Source of the DNA: an uncultured Roseicyclus sp.
GTDB taxonomy: Bacteria; Pseudomonadota; Alphaproteobacteria; Rhodobacterales; Rhodobacteraceae
Length of the DNA stretch: 64,000 nt
Direction: 5' to 3'
NCBI GenBank assembly: GCA_947489665.1
Contig: CANLEH010000005.1
Location: forward strand, 62,001 to 126,000
The translations under genes and the position numbers were made by a program. Every line of letters starts with the position of its first letter. Position 1 is the stretch's first letter. Shown one piece after another: positions 2,593 through 29,971 of the stretch. The notes under the pieces are model-generated. The model ran no database searches and was not told where the DNA came from. It was given only the letters and a program-made list of their open reading frames with translations.

Positions 2593-4104
2593 ATGAGTGG
2601 ACAGTTCACAATCCGGGGCCTTCCCGATCGCTTGAAACACGATGCCTGGTGGCTGATCGATGCGCCATCCAACACCAATGCGCGGCCACAGCCCGGACTT
2701 GGCGCGCGCATCTCGGATGGCAAGGCTGCCCTTCTGGCTCTGCTGATCCTGATCGTTCTGGCGGATATCAGTTTTTGGGGTCAGGCACCGGGCCTTTCCA
2801 TGGCCCTTTTCTGCATCGCCCTGTCCGCCGCAATGGTCGCATTCAAACCGATCAAGGCAACGCGCCGCGAATGGGCCATGGCCATGGCGTTCGCCGTCAT
2901 ATGCAATTTGCCCGTTATCGAACACAGCCAGCCGCTGGCATACGCTTTCAGTGTGGGCGGTATCGCGGTGCTGCTCGCGTGGGTGGTCCTTGGTAGGCAA
3001 ATCCGCTGGTCCGAGGCGCTGACACCCTTTATCCGCGCCTCCTCTGACGGCTTGATCCTGCTGCCGGCCCGCGTGATCGGCTCTGCGCGAAATCGCAAAG
3101 CCGACACAAACTGGGCGGCCCTCACCCGCGCCTACCTGCTTCCTGTCACCATCGCGTTGGTCTTTGTAACGCTATTCGCCGTCGCAAACCCGCTGTTCGA
3201 ACGGACCCTGGCCAACGTGGCCAATTTCGGCCCGATCAATGGCGAGACCATCGTGCGTATCATCTTCTGGGCCGCTGCCGCGTGCCTGATATGGCCCTAC
3301 CTCAACACCTTTGCCTTGCGCCGAGACGCAGCCTTCGACCTGAAATTCCCGGCGGGCGACCTCTCTGCCGGCTATCTGAATTCTGCGTCCCTACGCCTGT
3401 CCCTGATCCTGTTCAATGCGATCTTCGCGATCCAAACTCTGTCGGACCTGACGATCCTGACGGGCGGCGTCGCCCTGCCGGATGGCATGAGCTACGCCGA
3501 ATATGCGCATCGAGGCGCTTACCCTTTGCTGGTGACGGCGCTGCTTGCGGGCCTGTTCGCGGCCCTGACCCACAAAATGGTGGCCGAGGACAAACGGATG
3601 CGCTGGCTGGTCTACGCCTGGCTCGGCCAAACCCTGTTGCTGGTCTGCACTGCCGCGTTCCGACTGGCGCTGTATGTGCAGGCCTACAGCCTGACGCATC
3701 TGCGCATTGCGGCCTTCATCTGGATGGCGCTGATCGGCGTGGGCCTTGTGCTGGTCCTGATCCAGATCGCTCAGACCCGCCCCTTGGGCTGGCTGATCCG
3801 CTGGAACGCAGGCACGGCGCTCGCCACACTCTACATCTGCTGCTTCGTCAACTTCACCCACATCATCGCCGACCATAACCTGTCGGCAGACATTCCCATC
3901 AGCCGCCTCGACCTGCACTACCTCTGCGGCCTTGGCGAGCAGGTCATCCCGGCCATGTGGGAACACGGGCCCATCCATGACGATGTGATGTGTGGCGTCC
4001 ATGGCCGCCCGACCATTGCCTTTGACGACATCGGCAGCTGGCAGGAATGGGGCTTTCGCCGCTGGCGGCTTGAAGCGTATCTTACCGCTCACCACGATTT
4101 GTGA
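2593..4104 (+). CDS. DUF4173/DUF4153 family polytopic membrane protein
   Basis: A 503-residue integral membrane protein with roughly 10-12 hydrophobic helices, starting around residue 45 after a soluble N-terminus. The arrangement and the motif AFRLALYVQAYSLTHLR near residue 355 fit the DUF4153/DUF4173 family, whose function is unknown. The ATG at 2593 has a CGGAGA ribosome site. The gene ends 13 bases before an OmpR-type response regulator and its histidine kinase, so the three probably form one unit. This resembles the way the CreD membrane protein goes with CreBC. Inference: it may be a target or sensor accessory of the two-component system. A role in transport is not shown. Confidence 0.8.
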   Translation: MSGQFTIRGLPDRLKHDAWWLIDAPSNTNARPQPGLGARISDGKAALLALLILIVLADISFWGQAPGLSMALFCIALSAAMVAFKPIKATRREWAMAMAFAVICNLPVIEHSQPLAYAFSVGGIAVLLAWVVLGRQIRWSEALTPFIRASSDGLILLPARVIGSARNRKADTNWAALTRAYLLPVTIALVFVTLFAVANPLFERTLANVANFGPINGETIVRIIFWAAAACLIWPYLNTFALRRDAAFDLKFPAGDLSAGYLNSASLRLSLILFNAIFAIQTLSDLTILTGGVALPDGMSYAEYAHRGAYPLLVTALLAGLFAALTHKMVAEDKRMRWLVYAWLGQTLLLVCTAAFRLALYVQAYSLTHLRIAAFIWMALIGVGLVLVLIQIAQTRPLGWLIRWNAGTALATLYICCFVNFTHIIADHNLSADIPISRLDLHYLCGLGEQVIPAMWEHGPIHDDVMCGVHGRPTIAFDDIGSWQEWGFRRWRLEAYLTAHHDL

Positions 4105-24636: not shown

Positions 24637-25998
24637 ATGAAGGGCCGACTTTTGGACGGGGACCTGCCCCAGGAACGCAAACCGCCTGCGCGGTCTCGGG
24701 CCATGTCTGTCATGGCCCGCGCGGCCCCGCGTGCGCGCGCCCTTGCCTCACCAACCGCGCAACAGACCCCGAAACACCATGAAGAGGCCAAGCATCTTGC
24801 GGCCCTGCTGCAAGTTCGTGGCCTGATCAGCCCCGCAGATCTTGCCCGGGCTGAGCGGGCCCGGCGCGGCACGACGCTGTCCCTCGGCCAGGTGCTATTG
24901 ACCCAGGGCGCGATCAGCGAGGCTGAGTTGCTCTCCGCGCTCACCCATATCTACGGTGTGGGCCTTGCCGATTTCGACGCCACGCCGCCGGACCGAAGCC
25001 TTGCTCCGCATCTGCCGGCCAAGGCGGCCATCGCCCATGAAGCGGTGATCTGGCAAAGCAGCGGCACCACGCTGGTCATTGCTACCAGCCGTCCGGATCG
25101 CATCGAAGATCTGCGCGCCGCCCTTCCGCCCGGAACCCGCATCCTCAAGGCACTGGCCGCCCGCGCGCAAGTGATCGAAGCGCAGCGCCGGGTCTATGGC
25201 CCGCGTCTGGCCCGCGAAGCCGAAGCGCGCGTCCCCGCCCGCCATTCCTGCCGATCCTGGCGCGGCAGCGCGCTTGCCCGGATCGTGATCGCCGCGTCAC
25301 TTGCCGTCTTGCTCGGCCTGCTCGTGGCGCCTCACGTCGTTGCTGTGGCGGTCTTCGGGGTGGCGCTTGCGGTTTTCGCCGCCAATAGCATTCTGAAAGT
25401 CGCAGCGCTGATCGCGTCAGTCCGCGCCGCGTCCCAGCAACAAGACCCGCCCGAAGCAGAGAGCCAATTCCTGCATCTGCCCACCGTCTCAATCATCGTG
25501 CCCCTCTTCCGAGAGCCGGAGGTCGCCGGTGCCCTGGTCGAGCGGTTGCGCCAGATTGATTATCCGCTTGAACGCCTCGACGTCCTGCTCGCGATTGAAG
25601 AGGATGATCCCCTCACCCTGTCGGCCCTGCGCATGGGCACCCTGCCCCCTTGGATGCGTGCCGTGATTGTCCCGCGCGGCCACCCGCAAACCAAACCGCG
25701 CGCCCTGAACTATGTGCTGAACTATGTCCGGGGCGACATCGTGGGCATTTACGACGCCGAAGACCGGCCAGAACCGGACCAGATTCGCCGCGTCGTGCAG
25801 CGCTTTTCCGAAGTGCCGCGTGATGTGGCCTGCCTGCAGGGGCGGCTTGATTACTACAATGCGCGCCACAACTGGCTGGCGGCGATGTTTACCGTCGAAT
25901 ACGCCGCCTGGTTCCGGGTTTTGTTGCCGGGCGTGCAGCGCCTCGGGCTTGTGGTGCCCCTGGGCGGCACCACCCTGTTCCTGCGCGGTGTTATGTAG
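24637..25998 (+). pseudogene. Glycosyltransferase family 2 protein, 5' part, cut by an IS1595-type element
   Basis: The first 450 codons (to 25986) encode a large membrane glycosyltransferase. Residues about 50-130 resemble the MshEN/GspE N-terminal domain found on NrfB-like and BcsA-like proteins (LGQVLLTQGAISEAELLSAL). Two membrane helices follow (about 208-265). The GT2 catalytic core starts at VSIIVPLFREPEVAGALVERL and has the D-x-D-like IYDAEDRPEPDQ and QGRLDYYNARHNWLAAMFTVEY. The frame then runs into the inserted element and meets a TAG in its left inverted repeat (25996-25998). The rest of the gene is at 29972-30631. The truncated product lacks the TED and QxxRW motifs, so it should be inactive. 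Confidence 0.92.
25977..25986. repeat. Target-site duplication, left copy
   Basis: GTTCCTGCGC, identical to 29962-29971 on the other side of the element. Ten bases match exactly; the flanking base differs. Removing one copy plus the element restores the glycosyltransferase frame. Confidence 0.85.
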
Positions 25999-26010
25999 CA
26001 AACGCACCAA
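25987..26010. repeat. Left terminal inverted repeat of the IS1595-type element
   Basis: 24 bases beginning GGTGTTATGTAGC. It is a perfect inverted match to 29938-29961. It carries the stop codon that ends the interrupted glycosyltransferase. Confidence 0.9.
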
Positions 26011-26039
26011 GCAAGGGCGGGGCGTGAGCCGTGATTAGG

Positions 26040-26954
26040 CTATTGCTTGTGCTCGTTTTGTTTGCGCCAGTTTGGCCAAATGTCAGCGAAATCGCTTTCT
26101 TTGATGTCATGTCCCATACCGGCGAGAATGTCCGTGCTGGTATCCATTTCATAGCCCCTGGTGGGGTCGGGAGACCCGCCAGCGGTGAAAAAATTGGAAG
26201 AGGTTATTCTCCTTTTGAAGACGTCGCGCGCGATAACTTTCAATTGCACATGGCACGCCACTGCATTGTGGAAATCTCCAGCAGAAACCTTGCAGTGCAG
26301 GTAGTTGGTCGAAATTCCGACCGCCTCCCCCACGGGGATGGTTCCAATTTCGTGAATCACGCGGAAGTTGATAATTCTATTATTTACAAACAGTGTGATC
26401 TTCGCGAGAGCAAACCCGTCGATGGCTGGGGATTGACCATAGTTCACAGTGGAACAACTGAATGTCAGACAAGAACTTTGGCCATCATAGGTGATCCAAG
26501 CTTTGCTGGCAGCGATGTAGGCCCGGACTTGGGCCTCACCGATTTCCCTTGTGTCGTTGGCCATACTCTGCGTTTCGCGCAAAGTTTGCCAAATGAGGTA
26601 AATGGACCCACAGCCCACAAATATTCCCAAGACCCCAACCCAACCCATGATCCGAGTGAATCGCGCCATTACTTCTTGGGCATTCAAATCGCGTTCGGCG
26701 CGGCTATTGTCATTGTCGGCTTGTATTATCTCACTAAGGCAGCTTCTTACCGCGAGAGTGTCGAGGTCGGACCCGCATTCGTTTTGTATCCTTTGAATGG
26801 TTTGCTCGGTGTAGGCTTGGGTGGCCTGCTCATTGCGCACGCGCTGTTCGGTTAGAACAGTTGCAGTATCCCATGCCGCGAACCAGAAAGCAGTAAGAGC
26901 TAAGGCCCCGAAGACTACAAATGCAGTTGGTGTGCGCCAATCGCGGTCAGACAT
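26040..26954 (-). CDS. Cargo protein: two-TM protein with a C-terminal beta-rich domain
   Basis: A 304-residue protein. The first helix is near residues 10-28. A charged, probably coiled region of about 70 residues follows, then a second helix near 102-123. After it comes a helical linker (ETQSMANDTREIGEAQVRAYI), and then a beta-rich domain that begins with the NYGQSPA motif, seen as NxGxTPA in many two-TM proteins of mobile regions. The cysteines are scattered. The function is unknown. Its first 40 bases overlap the end of the DUF6471 gene, which points to translational coupling. It ends 29 bases inside the left inverted repeat. Confidence 0.72.
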   Translation of the reverse strand: MSDRDWRTPTAFVVFGALALTAFWFAAWDTATVLTEQRVRNEQATQAYTEQTIQRIQNECGSDLDTLAVRSCLSEIIQADNDNSRAERDLNAQEVMARFTRIMGWVGVLGIFVGCGSIYLIWQTLRETQSMANDTREIGEAQVRAYIAASKAWITYDGQSSCLTFSCSTVNYGQSPAIDGFALAKITLFVNNRIINFRVIHEIGTIPVGEAVGISTNYLHCKVSAGDFHNAVACHVQLKVIARDVFKRRITSSNFFTAGGSPDPTRGYEMDTSTDILAGMGHDIKESDFADIWPNWRKQNEHKQ

Positions 26955-27136
26955 GCCAGCAAGAAAGCCGCTGAAAACTTCCCACGGGATAGCTTATTCC
27001 TGACATTCGCCTCTCGCTCACTGATTCCAATATCAGCAAGCCTTTCAACAAGTTGGGCGTATGTCACTCCCTGGCGCTTCAACTCGGCTTTCAGAAGGTT
27101 GGCGGCCTTGGTTTCCCACTCAGTTTGTTCGGGCAT
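26915..27136 (-). CDS. Cargo protein: DUF6471 small helix-turn-helix protein
   Basis: A 73-residue protein matching the DUF6471 pattern: AANLLKAELKRQGVTYAQLVERL, then REANVRNKLSRGKFSAAFLLACLTAIG. The helices resemble a Cro/XRE fold, so it is probably a small DNA-binding regulator. An AGGTGA ribosome site precedes the ATG. It faces away from the transposase gene across a 102-base gap holding repeated GATACGT-like words. It could therefore repress the transposase, its own operon with the two-TM protein, or both. Confidence 0.8.
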   Translation of the reverse strand: MPEQTEWETKAANLLKAELKRQGVTYAQLVERLADIGISEREANVRNKLSRGKFSAAFLLACLTAIGAHQLHL

Positions 27137-27181
27137 GTGTCACCTATGATGCGAAAGTATCGTAAATGATTACATAAGCCC

Positions 27182-27210
27182 TTGTAGGGGATACGTCTAC
27201 ATACTATATG
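27182..27210 (+). promoter_or_regulatory. Possible transposase promoter
   Basis: TTGTAG and TATATG spaced by 17 bases, 29 bases before the transposase ATG. The related words GATACGTCTAC and GATACGTAAGC overlap or follow it, with TATCGTAA nearby. They could be binding sites for the DUF6471 protein. Confidence 0.4.
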
Positions 27211-27238
27211 CGATACGTAAGCATCGGATATAGTGACA

Positions 27239-28201
27239 ATGGCACAGCATTTTCTTCTCTCGGCAGCATCCCGCACCCTCAGCCTTCGCAAGATCTACAA
27301 GGCTGGCGAGGACGCGGCGTATCGCACCTTCTGCGAAATGCGCTGGCCTGAGACGAACGGCGAGGCCGTGTGCCCGCGCTGTAGCCATGACGAAACCTAC
27401 AGCATCACCACGCGCCGCAAGTTCAAGTGCAAGGCCTGTGCGCACCAGTTCAGCGTCACGTCCGGCACCATCTTTGCCTCGCGCAAGATGGACTTCGTGG
27501 ACCTGCTGGCCGCGATTTGCATCATCGTGAACGCCGCCAAGGGCGTGTCCATGGTGCAGCTTTCCCGCGATCTGGACTGCCAATACAAGACGGCCTTCGT
27601 GCTGGCCCACAAGCTGCGTGAAGCCATGGCAGAGGAAGTGCAGACCGGCGAAGTGCTGGACGGCCACGTAGAAGTCGATGGCGCTTACTTCGGCGGTCAT
27701 ATCCGCCCTGAGAACCACAAGGCAGACCGTGTGGATCGTCGCTTGAAGCGCCACCAGAACGGACGCCGCCGCGTTGTCGTCGCCCTGCGTGAACGTCAAG
27801 GCCGTGTGTTGCCGTTTGTGGCTCACACAGAGGCCGAGGGCGTGGCACTGGTGCGTGAGAACGTGTCCCGAATGGCAACCGTATCAGCCGACGAAGCGAG
27901 CCATTGGGACATGCTGCACGGCGCATGGGACGTGGAGCGCGTCAACCACTCCGAGGTCTACAGCGATCACGGCAAGCACACCAACATGGTGGAAAGCTAC
28001 TTTGCCCGCCTGCGCCGCATGGTTATGGGCCAGCACCACCACGTAAGCCCGCAATACCTGCACCAATATGCGAACCACGCTGCATGGCTCGAGGACAACC
28101 GCCGGAAAAGCAATGGCGGGCAGGCCATGGGCTTGGTGCAGAACGCCATGGGTGCTCGAGTTAGCCGCCAATGGAAGGGGTATTGGCAGCGAGCTTCTTA
28201 A
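27239..28201 (+). CDS. IS1595-family (ISXO2-like) transposase
   Basis: A 320-residue DDE-type transposase. An N-terminal zinc ribbon has two C-x-x-C pairs (VCPRCSHDE and KCKACAHQF) at about residues 45-65. Catalytic positions fit the family: D in HVEVDGAYFGG near residue 144, D in VSADEASHWD near 215, and the N/E region in HTNMVESYFARLRRMVMG near 246, followed by the HQYANHAAWLEDNRR tail. The reading frame is intact, so the element may be active. The ATG at 27239 is used; a GTG at 27233 in the same frame is also possible. Confidence 0.95.
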   Translation: MAQHFLLSAASRTLSLRKIYKAGEDAAYRTFCEMRWPETNGEAVCPRCSHDETYSITTRRKFKCKACAHQFSVTSGTIFASRKMDFVDLLAAICIIVNAAKGVSMVQLSRDLDCQYKTAFVLAHKLREAMAEEVQTGEVLDGHVEVDGAYFGGHIRPENHKADRVDRRLKRHQNGRRRVVVALRERQGRVLPFVAHTEAEGVALVRENVSRMATVSADEASHWDMLHGAWDVERVNHSEVYSDHGKHTNMVESYFARLRRMVMGQHHHVSPQYLHQYANHAAWLEDNRRKSNGGQAMGLVQNAMGARVSRQWKGYWQRAS

Positions 28202-28420
28202 AAAGAACACTAAGTGAACGTTGTAGGGGTAGACGCTTAATGTAGCTTTGCGGTAACTGTGACATACAGGTGCTAGGGGGCTTTCTTGGCGGTCAGCCCT
28301 CCTAGCAGAAAACCATATCCATGTCGTCGCATGGGGCCTCCCTGTACCTCGGTCTATGCCTGAATCGGCAGAATCCGTCAACCCATGCTGCGGCGCAGAA
28401 TGCCCAAGGAGGGCAGTGCG
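28202..28420 (+). other. Gap between transposase and RhuM gene with a bulged hairpin
   Basis: 219 bases inside the element with no convincing gene. A hairpin at 28272-28306 pairs GCTAGGGGGC with GCCCTCCTAGC (one bulged T) over a 14-base loop. It lacks a T-run, so it is more likely a leader structure or protein site than a terminator. The promoter of the RhuM gene should lie here. Confidence 0.4.
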
Positions 28421-29446
28421 ATGGCTAAAAGGCCTACTTTTGAGCGCCTTAAAGATGGCGTCCGTGGTGTCGTGGATAGCGTCAAGACGACGCTTGGATT
28501 CGACGTGGTGGCGCGCTTCCAGGATGGAGGGACTGAGGTCGATTTCCCCATAGACATGGAGGGAGATACGGTCTGGGCGACCACTCAGCAGATCGCTGAC
28601 TTGTTTGAGATTGACCGTTCTGTAGTCTCGAAACACATCAAAAAAATCTTCTCTACGGGTGAGTTGGATCGCTCAAGCGCAACCTGTGCAAAATTTGCAC
28701 AGGTTCGCGTCGAAGGTGAACGCGATGTGTCACGAGAAGTCGAGCATTTCAGTCTCGATGTCATCTTGGCGGTCGGATACAGAGTTAGCGGAAAGCGTGC
28801 GACAGCGTTTCGGAGGTGGGCATCGAACGTTCTCAAGGGCTACATCCAAGATGGGTACGCCCTCAATGGGAAGCGGTTGGATGCAGATCCGTCTGCTCTT
28901 CTACACCTAGCTCAAGAAGTTCGCGCCATTCGGACTTCAGAAAAGAACCTCTACTCTCAGGTACGTGAAGTTTTCTCGCTCGCAGCCATCGATTATGACA
29001 AGGATAGTCCAGAAGCTCGAAAGTTCTTCGCCGAGGCGCAGGATACCATGCACTATGCCGCGACCGAGATGACGGCATCTGAGATCATCGTAAAGAGGTG
29101 TGATGCGTCGAAACCGAATATGGGGCTCGTTGCGTTGGGCAATCAACGCCCGACCAAAGCTGATGTGTCGGTGGCAAAGAACTATTGCCCTGCTGACGAA
29201 CTTCGCCGGATGCAGCTTATTGGCGAGGCGTTTTTGCTTTACGTGGAAGGGATAGCCGAGCAAGAAAAGCAAGTTTCAATGGCTCGCCTGCTGGCCAAAT
29301 TCCAAGGCATGGTCGAGTTCTACGATTATCCTGTCTTCCCAGGTTATACCTACAAGCGCCCTACAGCGAAAGAAGCCAAGCGCTTTGCAGGTAAACAGTA
29401 TGAACTGTTTAAGCAGGATTCCCCTACGCAGACTGCGGAGACTTAA
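28421..29446 (+). CDS. Cargo protein: RhuM family
   Basis: A 341-residue RhuM-family protein (named after Salmonella rhuM; biochemical function unknown). The family core is clear: WATTQQIADLFEIDRSVVSKHIKKIF near residue 52 (HTH-like), then CAKFAQV near 90. Next come VEHFSLDVILAVGYRVSGKRATAFRRWASNVLKGYI near 108-143 and a C-terminal helical part ending in QYELFKQD. The ATG at 28421 has a strong AAGGAGGG site 7 bases upstream. RhuM genes are often found in defence or restriction-modification islands. Here it is transposon cargo. A perfect palindrome lies inside the gene at 28681-28705. Confidence 0.88.
   Translation: MAKRPTFERLKDGVRGVVDSVKTTLGFDVVARFQDGGTEVDFPIDMEGDTVWATTQQIADLFEIDRSVVSKHIKKIFSTGELDRSSATCAKFAQVRVEGERDVSREVEHFSLDVILAVGYRVSGKRATAFRRWASNVLKGYIQDGYALNGKRLDADPSALLHLAQEVRAIRTSEKNLYSQVREVFSLAAIDYDKDSPEARKFFAEAQDTMHYAATEMTASEIIVKRCDASKPNMGLVALGNQRPTKADVSVAKNYCPADELRRMQLIGEAFLLYVEGIAEQEKQVSMARLLAKFQGMVEFYDYPVFPGYTYKRPTAKEAKRFAGKQYELFKQDSPTQTAET
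28681..28705. repeat. Perfect 12-bp-arm palindrome inside the RhuM gene
   Basis: AACCTGTGCAAA, one central A, then TTTGCACAGGTT. It covers the codons for the conserved CAKFAQV motif. The middle part follows partly from the codons needed for C-A-K-F-A, but the outer six bases on each side are not forced by the protein. Confidence 0.7.
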
Positions 29447-29471
29447 ATCTCTCACGGGGTTTGCGCTGGCC

Positions 29472-29894
29472 TTACGAGGCCAGCGACCACTCAAACCGCC
29501 CCATCCTGTCTTTGACGCCCACCACAACCCCGCGCTGGCGCAGCAGTCTCAGCGCTTTCGACACGCGCCGTGTAACGTCCATGACAAGCCGCTGATCCGT
29601 GATGTTCCGGCCTTCCTCTGCGCAAATGCGTTCGGCCAAATCGCGCGATGATAGCGGCTCACCCTTGCGGAGTTCCCGCAAAAGGCATTGCCTCAACTCA
29701 TTCCGGACAAAGATCACCAACCGATGCTCACGCACCTGACGGCCTTCTAGGTCACCCTGATAGCCTAAGGCGTCCAGCACTCGGTCTATGGCTTCTACGT
29801 CATTGCAGACCTCAGCTTGGCGCACTCTGATAGCCTGTAGTTCAGCCATCATGTCGTCACGGGTCTTAAGCAGTCCGGTGATTGTCTGTTCCAT
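29472..29894 (-). CDS. Cargo protein: coiled-coil plus winged-helix protein
   Basis: A 140-residue protein. Residues 1-45 form a likely coiled coil (LLKTRDDMMAELQAIRVRQAEV). Residues about 60-140 look like a winged helix (LSSRDLAERICAEEG, then VTRRVSKALRLLRQRGVVVGV and a short beta-hairpin FEWSLAS). I know no named family. It is probably DNA-binding. It converges with the RhuM gene (25 bases between the stops) and starts 43 bases inside the right inverted repeat, so it may bind the element end. Confidence 0.65.
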   Translation of the reverse strand: MEQTITGLLKTRDDMMAELQAIRVRQAEVCNDVEAIDRVLDALGYQGDLEGRQVREHRLVIFVRNELRQCLLRELRKGEPLSSRDLAERICAEEGRNITDQRLVMDVTRRVSKALRLLRQRGVVVGVKDRMGRFEWSLAS

Positions 29895-29937
29895 GCGCGG
29901 AACCTAGCAAAACAAGGCACGCGGGGATTCACTTTTT

Positions 29938-29961
29938 TTGGTGCGTTTGCTACATAACACC
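29938..29961. repeat. Right terminal inverted repeat of the IS1595-type element
   Basis: 24 bases ending GCTACATAACACC, the exact reverse complement of 25987-26010. Confidence 0.9.
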
Positions 29962-29971
29962 GTTCCTGCGC
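29962..29971. repeat. Target-site duplication, right copy
   Basis: GTTCCTGCGC, matching 25977-25986. IS1595 elements usually make 8-bp duplications, so ten identical bases is two more than expected. Confidence 0.8.

What the first reader, a model, noticed from the sequence alone, without database searches (positions are those of the whole stretch)
25987..29961. IS1595-type element with four cargo genes: candidate undescribed system
Seen: a 3,975-bp element with 24-bp perfect inverted ends carries its transposase plus four genes with intact frames. These are RhuM-family, DUF6471 HTH overlapping a two-TM protein, and a coiled-coil/winged-helix protein. Known: some IS1595-family members carry passenger genes; RhuM genes occur in defence and restriction islands. 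Inference: the cargo has two probable DNA-binding proteins, a membrane protein and RhuM. That is the make-up of a regulated defence or persistence module, not of random cargo. I know of no described system with this set.
Basis: partly seen in the sequence, partly recalled or inferred. Interest (0 to 1): 0.78.

Follow-up and report, generated by a model that had tools for sequence, protein, structure and literature searches.

The report
Transposon with swappable defence-gene slots
A 4-kb bacterial jumping gene, inserted in a sugar-transferase gene, belongs to a family that keeps a fixed transposition core and carries exchangeable passenger genes, often of phage-defence or toxin-antitoxin type; here the passengers are a RhuM gene and a membrane protein.

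Summary
The element is real: 25986-29962 (3,977 bp), perfect 25-bp inverted ends, 8-bp target repeat TTCCTGCG, IS1595-type transposase, inserted in a glycosyltransferase gene that has an open full-length frame in six same-genus genomes. The reading as one four-gene system fails. I compared 73 elements (the window plus 72 of 80 fetched relatives with both ends). DUF6471, transposase and the coiled-coil/winged-helix protein are found in 73 of 73: they are the chassis. The smallest distant relatives are just transposase plus winged-helix gene. The membrane protein fills a left slot (same family in 31 of 73); RhuM sits in a right slot, in the window only. Slot contents are unlinked to transposase ancestry: elements with 93-94% identical chassis DNA carry different cargo. 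RhuM or a Panacea, BstA/Bro-N, NYN (HEC-09), M78-peptidase or DUF4258 gene is found in 26 of 73, types seen in toxin-antitoxin and anti-phage loci; the cargo pairs measurable show purifying selection. So the defence flavour is partly right, the module is not. Known kind: transporter IS (tIS) of the IS1595 family. The two-slot, exchanging architecture was not found in my literature searches. RhuM's activity is inferred.

The parts
25986..29962 (.). whole element, 3,977 bp
   Evidence: 25-nt perfect inverted repeats and 8-bp repeat
25978..25985 (.). target-site duplication, left copy TTCCTGCG
   Evidence: same 8-bp geometry (at most 1 mismatch) in 67 of 71 testable elements
29963..29970 (.). target-site duplication, right copy TTCCTGCG
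25986..26010 (+). left terminal inverted repeat
   Evidence: family consensus CGGCCTTATGTATCAAACGCACCAA
29938..29962 (-). right terminal inverted repeat
26040..26954 (-). left-slot passenger: 304-aa membrane protein, two N-terminal hydrophobic stretches, long helices, C-terminal beta strands (family C3)
   Evidence: no Pfam family; 31 of 73 elements; AlphaFold2 model mean pLDDT 74
26915..27136 (-). chassis: DUF6471, 73 aa, divergent from transposase
   Evidence: PF20075 E 1.5e-31; profile match in 73 of 73 elements
27137..27238 (.). divergent promoter region between DUF6471 and transposase, 40% GC
   Evidence: alignment of 73; promoter role inferred
27239..28201 (+). chassis: IS1595 transposase (zinc ribbon + ISXO2-like domain)
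   Evidence: PF12762, PF12760, NF033547
28421..29446 (+). right-slot passenger: RhuM family protein, 341 aa, AAGGAGG 8 nt upstream of ATG
   Evidence: PF13310 E 5.1e-70; PADLOC PDC-S05 E 9.1e-97; sequence
29472..29894 (-). chassis: coiled-coil + winged-helix protein, 140 aa (family C2)
   Evidence: profile match in 73 of 73 elements; also in small elements without slots; AlphaFold2 pLDDT 92.6
24637..25985 (+). interrupted host gene, 5' part: glycosyltransferase with MshEN domain
   Evidence: PF13641, PF05157
29971..30631 (+). interrupted host gene, 3' part
   Evidence: joined frame of 669 codons; open frames of 660-711 aa in 6 same-genus genomes

Best explanation
This is a passenger-carrying IS1595-family transposon made of a conserved chassis and two cargo slots. 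Chassis: 25-bp ends, transposase, a convergent coiled-coil/winged-helix gene at the right end, and DUF6471 divergent from the transposase. Left slot: between the left end and DUF6471; right slot: between the transposase stop and the winged-helix gene. Cargo is exchanged between related elements largely independently of the chassis, probably by recombination in the shared blocks when two elements meet in one cell (inferred). In the window the left slot holds a membrane protein and the right slot RhuM. Shown: anatomy, ends, 8-bp duplication, insertion into a host gene, chassis conservation, unlinked cargo, purifying selection on the passenger pairs that could be measured, a TA/defence-type gene in about a third of elements. 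Inferred: DUF6471 represses the divergent transposase (and perhaps left-cargo) promoters, the winged-helix protein is an accessory or regulator of transposition, and RhuM is a single-gene anti-phage or growth-arrest effector that pays for the element's upkeep.
For: Both ends found for 72 of 80 fetched relatives; 8-bp repeat with at most 1 mismatch in 67 of 71 testable elements, window included. DUF6471, winged-helix and transposase profiles match in 73 of 73 elements (profiles built from these elements; the first ORF clustering gave 62 and 64 of 73 for the first two). Small distant relatives with transposase and convergent winged-helix gene: L211-L214, 1,537-1,691 bp, exact 8-bp repeats in L212, L213, L214, not in L211. 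Exchange: L081/L082 share DUF6471+transposase at 92.7% DNA identity, but the left genes are unrelated, the right slot holds an NYN gene in one and nothing in the other, and the winged-helix proteins are 21% identical; L062/L079 share transposase 94.3% and right end 86.7%, slots differ. Left-slot class needs 42 changes on the transposase tree, shuffled mean 40.8; 0 of 55 pairs with transposase DNA at least 84% identical share a right-slot family. TA/defence-type genes, RhuM included, in 26 of 73 elements. dN/dS 0.02-0.30 in 8 of 12 passenger-gene pairs compared. Two different elements co-reside in Roseovarius aestuarii KCTC 22174 (L031, L041).
Against: About two thirds of elements have no slot gene of the six families counted. 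The flank control was not empty: 13 PADLOC families, one member each, of 84 ORFs, one of them HEC-09. Winged-helix alleles also exchange, so that gene is less tied to the transposase than DUF6471. In viral contigs the winged-helix gene is missing or unfound in 3 of 20 loci, DUF6471 in 3 of 20, and in four loci the winged-helix gene has the other orientation, so the layout is not universal. Four of 12 dN/dS pairs were saturated and four of the eight values rest on dS above 2. No conserved site flanks the slots, so the exchange route is a guess. No function of RhuM, DUF6471 or the winged-helix protein was tested; no chain of a solved structure matched RhuM by sequence.
Confidence: 0.8

Rival explanations
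1. The four cargo genes are one undescribed defence or persistence system.
For: Four open frames; RhuM matches a defence-candidate model; DUF6471 and membrane gene overlap.
Against: RhuM in 1 of 73 elements; among 394 genomes, RhuM genomes share none with DUF6471 or transposase genomes except the window's own; the winged-helix gene is in elements without any cargo.
Confidence: 0.04
2. The cargo is mainly addiction: toxin-antitoxin or toxin-like genes that stabilise the transposon in the host, rather than phage defence for the host's benefit.
For: Panacea antitoxin-type genes in 8 of 73 elements; of the 7 first found, 6 have an adjacent same-strand ORF, of five different clusters; HicB-like, RelE and MqsA matches, one ORF each; RhuM was proposed to be a toxin domain (PMC3710099, passages). 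A regulatory, invasion-stabilising role was suggested for TA pairs in Tn3-family transposons (PMC7157771, abstract).
Against: The window's RhuM stands alone in its slot, and single-gene right slots of BstA or NYN type exist.
Confidence: 0.3
3. DUF6471 and the overlapping membrane gene form a two-gene toxin-antitoxin pair, with RhuM unrelated.
For: 40-bp overlap on one strand in the window; the same order and overlap in many C3 elements.
Against: DUF6471 is kept in the 42 elements without C3, often with an unrelated gene on the opposite strand; median identity 0.68 for DUF6471 against 0.20 for C3. Not against it: identity of the two is weakly correlated, Spearman 0.21, 3 of 500 permutations as high.
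Confidence: 0.12
4. The passengers are chance hitchhikers without function.
For: Contents look random with respect to transposase ancestry; many slot ORFs are single-occurrence (125 singletons among all ORFs).
Against: dN/dS 0.02-0.30 in the 8 measurable of 12 passenger pairs; more TA/defence-type domains than in length-matched flank ORFs (against 58, 59).
Confidence: 0.1

Closest known systems
Transporter IS (tIS) of the IS1595 family, e.g. ISNha5
   Same: IS1595 transposase, 8-bp target repeat, passenger genes including transcription regulators (passage in PMC11891212; family facts in passages of PMC8101967; primary source Siguier 2009 not read)
   Different: Here a clade shows a fixed chassis with two slots whose contents exchange independently and are often of TA/defence type; membership in the ISNha5 subgroup itself could not be tested
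Tn3-family transposons with embedded toxin-antitoxin pairs (PMC7157771; abstract, outline and section 14 read)
   Same: TA genes carried within the transposon; that paper has a section on acquisition and exchange of TA modules (heading seen, text not read)
   Different: There TA pairs lie beside resolvase genes and res sites; here the transposase is of IS1595 type, and the cargo also includes BstA-, NYN-, RhuM- and membrane-protein genes
RhuM genes inside type I restriction-modification operons
   Same: Same family, 37-39% identity
   Different: There RhuM lies between hsdM and hsdS in 5 of 5 plasmid neighbourhoods opened; here it stands alone in a transposon
BstA, prophage-encoded abortive-infection protein (PMC8585504, start of abstract in a search listing only)
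   Same: BstA/Bro-N-type proteins occupy the same right slot in 6 of 73 elements
   Different: RhuM is a different family; no test of abortive infection here

Membership tests
IS1595 insertion sequence family | ISXO2-like DDE transposase domain and N-terminal zinc ribbon | tested here: met
   PF12762 E 1.4e-36, PF12760 E 3e-14; NF033547 over its cut-off
IS1595 insertion sequence family | terminal inverted repeats and 8-bp target duplication | tested here: met
   25-nt perfect repeats; TTCCTGCG both sides; 67 of 71 elements
Transporter IS (tIS) | passenger genes not needed for transposition inside the ends | tested here: inconclusive
   passengers lie inside the ends, and vary or are absent while transposase and ends stay; that they are not needed for transposition is inferred, not assayed
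ISNha5 subgroup of IS1595 | sequence kinship with ISNha5 | not testable with these tools
   ISfinder not held; three Nitrobacter hamburgensis plasmids gave no match and its chromosome was not searched
RhuM family | Virulence_RhuM domain | tested here: met
   PF13310, residues 87-334, E 5.1e-70
RhuM of type I restriction operons | next to hsdM/hsdS | tested here: not met
   neighbours in the window are transposase and winged-helix gene
Anti-phage defence system | protects host from phage | not testable with these tools
   PADLOC PDC-S05 is a candidate model only
Tn3-type TA transposon | Tn3-type transposase | tested here: not met
   the transposase matches IS1595 models; none of the element's other four proteins matched a resolvase model

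The most novel reading that the evidence does not exclude
A widespread alphaproteobacterial transposon family works as a compact, interchangeable carrier of defence and toxin-antitoxin genes: a constant transposition chassis with two loading bays whose contents are reshuffled faster than the transposase evolves, so that the many unannotated slot genes, including the window's membrane protein, are an untapped set of new anti-phage or TA systems.
Probability: 0.35. Interest if true: 0.75.

Novelty: new variant of a known kind. Interest (0 to 1): 0.5.

Why it matters
If right, the ends and chassis give a simple search key: anything found in either slot is a candidate defence or TA gene, without needing a known domain. 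It also gives a natural case of cargo exchange in an IS-sized element in which I found no cassette-type recombination site, and this can be tested directly. For the window itself, it replaces one supposed four-gene system by two chassis genes and two independent passengers.

Tried and rejected
Rejected: four-gene module (no co-occurrence). Right-slot cargo linked to the winged-helix allele: no, 23 pairs that share a right-slot family have median winged-helix identity 0.26 against 0.28 for 1,868 others. Site-specific cassette insertion: no 8-mer within 120 bp of the slot borders is shared by more than 4 of 64 (after the transposase) or 6 of 61 (before the winged-helix gene) elements. Over-dispersion of the left slot on the transposase tree (28 changes for C3, shuffled mean 23.6, 499 of 500 shuffles as low) was weaker in a nearest-neighbour test (same class 9 of 73, expected 14.7, 318 of 5,000 as low) and absent in pair tests, so I claim only independence. 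Promoter and terminator scans found no more than shuffles; no Rfam family. PDB fold search of the winged-helix model: no match at E 0.001, best ones ArsR/Fur-type regulators. Membrane model: weak match to Kir-channel structures, E 1.7e-4, TM-score 0.26, too low to name a function; a profile search of that family gave ApaG at E 0.03 as best. An operator-like inverted repeat in the consensus of the DUF6471-transposase gap is imperfect in the window and poorly conserved by column; not used. ISNha5 kinship: no match on three N. hamburgensis plasmids. I guessed that the 354-360-aa ORF beside RhuM in L254 and L255 was an integrase; one of them matched no solved structure, and the translations recall an AlbA/Schlafen-type protein instead (recalled, from no call).

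Rows dropped before counts: 8 of 80 relatives without two recognisable ends; slot ORFs under 90 aa in the family scans; an antisense ORF cluster (C5) over the transposase. ORFs were chosen by a longest-first rule, which missed genes (for example a BstA-type gene in L075 and a Panacea gene in L009, found); the family scans rest on that ORF set. The 80 loci are the most similar of 226 found. Of 26 loci from the 394-genome sample, 18 are the same loci as in that set. The nine plasmid loci opened with the transposase were chosen by me from 282 records, and the dN/dS pairs were chosen by me.
Full report
The window carries a 3,977-bp element at 25986-29962 with 25-nt perfect inverted ends and an 8-bp target repeat, TTCCTGCG. 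It lies in a glycosyltransferase gene (PF13641, MshEN domain). With the element and one repeat left out, the frame reads 669 codons without an internal stop, and the six other same-genus genomes of one search hold the gene's 5' part inside open frames of 660-711 aa. None of 12 other same-genus genomes searched has this transposase at E 1e-60, and the window's genome holds one copy, which suggests a recent insertion in this lineage.

Gene content: transposase (IS1595), RhuM (PF13310 E 5.1e-70; PADLOC candidate PDC-S05 E 9.1e-97), DUF6471 (E 1.5e-31), a membrane protein without any Pfam family, and a coiled-coil/winged-helix protein (AlphaFold2 mean pLDDT 92.6).

A scan of one genome per species with the transposase found 226 relatives, of which the best 80 were fetched; most bear Rhodobacteraceae/roseobacter names, a few are metagenome bins with other names. 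In 72 of the 80 I found both ends; with the window that makes 73 elements of 2.3-4.6 kb. Taking the repeat to begin with C, the 8-bp duplication has at most one mismatch in 67 of 71 testable elements. The ends are conserved for about 25 bp only.

Clustering the ORFs of the 73 elements shows a common order: left end, variable left gene(s), DUF6471, transposase, variable right gene(s), winged-helix gene, right end. Profiles built from these families match in 73 of 73 elements for each of DUF6471, transposase and the winged-helix protein (E 1e-3 over all six-frame ORFs); the first clustering had given 62 and 64 of 73 for DUF6471 and the winged-helix family. The window's membrane-protein family (C3) fills the left slot in 31; other left genes include C4 in 10, and a small two-helix protein plus M78-type peptidase in 4. 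RhuM is found in the window's element only (1 of 73).

Other samples. In 394 family genomes the transposase (E 1e-80 or better) is in 27, one match each (at most five candidates a genome were scored). Of the 26 loci besides the window's, 24 have DUF6471 next to it and the other two are cut near a contig edge; all 26 have a winged-helix hit, though in L182 the best one lies just outside the element. Of these 26 loci 18 repeat the first set. In viral contigs, 20 loci with a substantial transposase match have DUF6471 in 17, the winged-helix family in 17, and a repeat-flanked pair of ends in 11; in L236, L239, L246 and L247 the winged-helix gene has the other orientation. At least L230 repeats L022.

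More distant relatives on plasmids show what the basic unit is. L211 to L214 (transposase identity 46-61%) are 1,537-1,691 bp, with a transposase and a convergent winged-helix gene between conserved ends; exact 8-bp repeats flank L212, L213 and L214, not L211. I take the winged-helix gene to be part of the transposition unit, not cargo. DUF6471 was found in one of the nine plasmid loci opened (L210), so it belongs to the chassis of a narrower group.

Cargo and chassis evolve apart. L062/L079 share transposase DNA at 94.3% and the right end at 86.7%, with different slots. L081/L082 share DUF6471 plus transposase at 92.7%, but the left genes are unrelated, the right slot holds an NYN gene in L081 and nothing in L082, and the winged-helix proteins are 21% identical. 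In the pairs listed, homology mostly stops at the transposase stop codon and in or near the 3' part of DUF6471. Identity of transposases correlates with DUF6471 (Spearman 0.29, 55 elements, 0 of 500 permutations as high) and the winged-helix protein (0.23, 58 elements, 0 of 500), not with C3 (0.04, 27 elements, 153 of 500). The left-slot class needs 42 changes on the transposase tree against a shuffled mean of 40.8. Of 55 pairs with transposase DNA at least 84% identical, 0 share a right-slot family; of all 2,628 pairs 26 do. Two different elements sit in one strain, Roseovarius aestuarii KCTC 22174 (L031, L041), so the chance to recombine exists. No shared site flanks the slots.

What the slots carry. 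Among 84 right-slot ORFs, Pfam finds SocA/Panacea in 7, KilA-N 3, M78 peptidase 3, HTH_3 3, NYN 3, DUF4258 2, and Bro-N, HicB-like, RelE, MqsA, SNase and DUF3800 in one each, plus single other matches, among them a nested transposase (25 of 26 families shown). PADLOC finds BstA in 5, RmrA in 4, HEC-09 in 3, capP in 3 (one ORF may match several models). Among 79 left-slot ORFs the M78 peptidase (4) stands out, with capP/RmrA models in 4 and PDC-S42 in 2. In 84 length-matched flank ORFs no PADLOC family had more than one member (13 families, one of them HEC-09), and the 25 of 53 Pfam families shown held no TA family. With profiles built from slot genes and run on all frames, 26 of 73 elements hold Panacea (8), BstA/Bro-N type (6), NYN (3), M78 (7), DUF4258 (2) or RhuM (1); L044 holds two. 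Of the seven Panacea genes first found, six have an adjacent ORF on the same strand, of five different clusters, which fits the promiscuity reported for Panacea antitoxins (PMC8832971, start of abstract in a listing). dN/dS could be computed for 8 of 12 passenger pairs and was 0.02-0.30; four of these rest on dS above 2, and in the other four pairs dS was saturated.

RhuM elsewhere. In five of five plasmid neighbourhoods opened it lies between hsdM and hsdS of type I restriction systems. A second, distant IS1595 transposase (32%) on a 3-kb contig, L157, is followed by an overlapping RhuM gene and pieces that I read as DUF3800-like (by eye, no family call); no ends were found on that contig. 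So RhuM stands beside IS1595 transposases at least twice. The nearest RhuM proteins found, 56-60%, are in three viral contigs, and 48 phage records have matches, 21 of Streptococcus names, several of them satellite phages. RhuM was proposed to be a toxin domain because of its neighbours (PMC3710099, passages read).

Mechanism. Most likely the transposase and ends move the unit; the winged-helix protein and DUF6471 regulate or assist (inferred from conservation, position and predicted fold); the passengers are kept because they help the host or the element. For RhuM I favour a single-gene anti-phage or growth-arrest effector, about 0.4 likely on its own, untested. The membrane protein (two N-terminal hydrophobic stretches, long helices, C-terminal strands, pLDDT 74) could be a membrane effector; there is no direct evidence.

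Novelty. Passenger-carrying IS1595 members (tIS, ISNha5) are known (PMC11891212 passage; PMC3129680 passages; the 2009 primary paper was not read). My searches for IS1595 with passenger genes, ISNha5, DUF6471 (no paper), IS1595 with Roseobacter, IS1595 with toxin-antitoxin and anti-phage and transporter IS with defence cargo listed no title or abstract start that describes this two-slot family; most listed papers were not opened. I rate it a new variant of a known kind.

Noticed in passing
L157:144-2822: A different IS1595 transposase (32% to the window's) followed by an overlapping RhuM gene and DUF3800-like pieces (read by eye) on a 3,017-bp contig: RhuM beside a second IS1595 branch.
   Followed up: partly
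L203:4076-5310: DUF6471 plus membrane-protein gene between two family-type ends, 1.2 kb, no transposase hit; no matching 8-bp repeat. Possibly a non-autonomous derivative or a deletion remnant.
   Followed up: partly
L043 (same locus as L182): about 2918-3795: Directly beside the element lies what looks like the right end of another one: NYN/HEC-09-like gene, winged-helix fragment and a right end.
   Followed up: no
394-genome sample: All 27 genomes with this transposase show one match at E 1e-80 (at most five candidates scored): low copy number for an IS, as if transposition were held down. Two assemblies do hold two (L031/L041, L032/L072).
   Followed up: no
G000:C5:127544-128446 (L099), about 1.5 kb beyond the window's right edge: A second, distant IS1595 transposase (32%) in the same genome.
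   Followed up: no
L254 and L255: Viral-contig RhuM genes (56% to the window's) stand next to a 354-360-aa protein that recalls AlbA/Schlafen-type proteins (recalled, no call).
   Followed up: partly
L216:2910-3704: A gene annotated inositol monophosphatase lies in the left-slot position of a repeat-flanked 2,752-bp relative in Microvirga ossetica: cargo is not always TA/defence-like.
   Followed up: no
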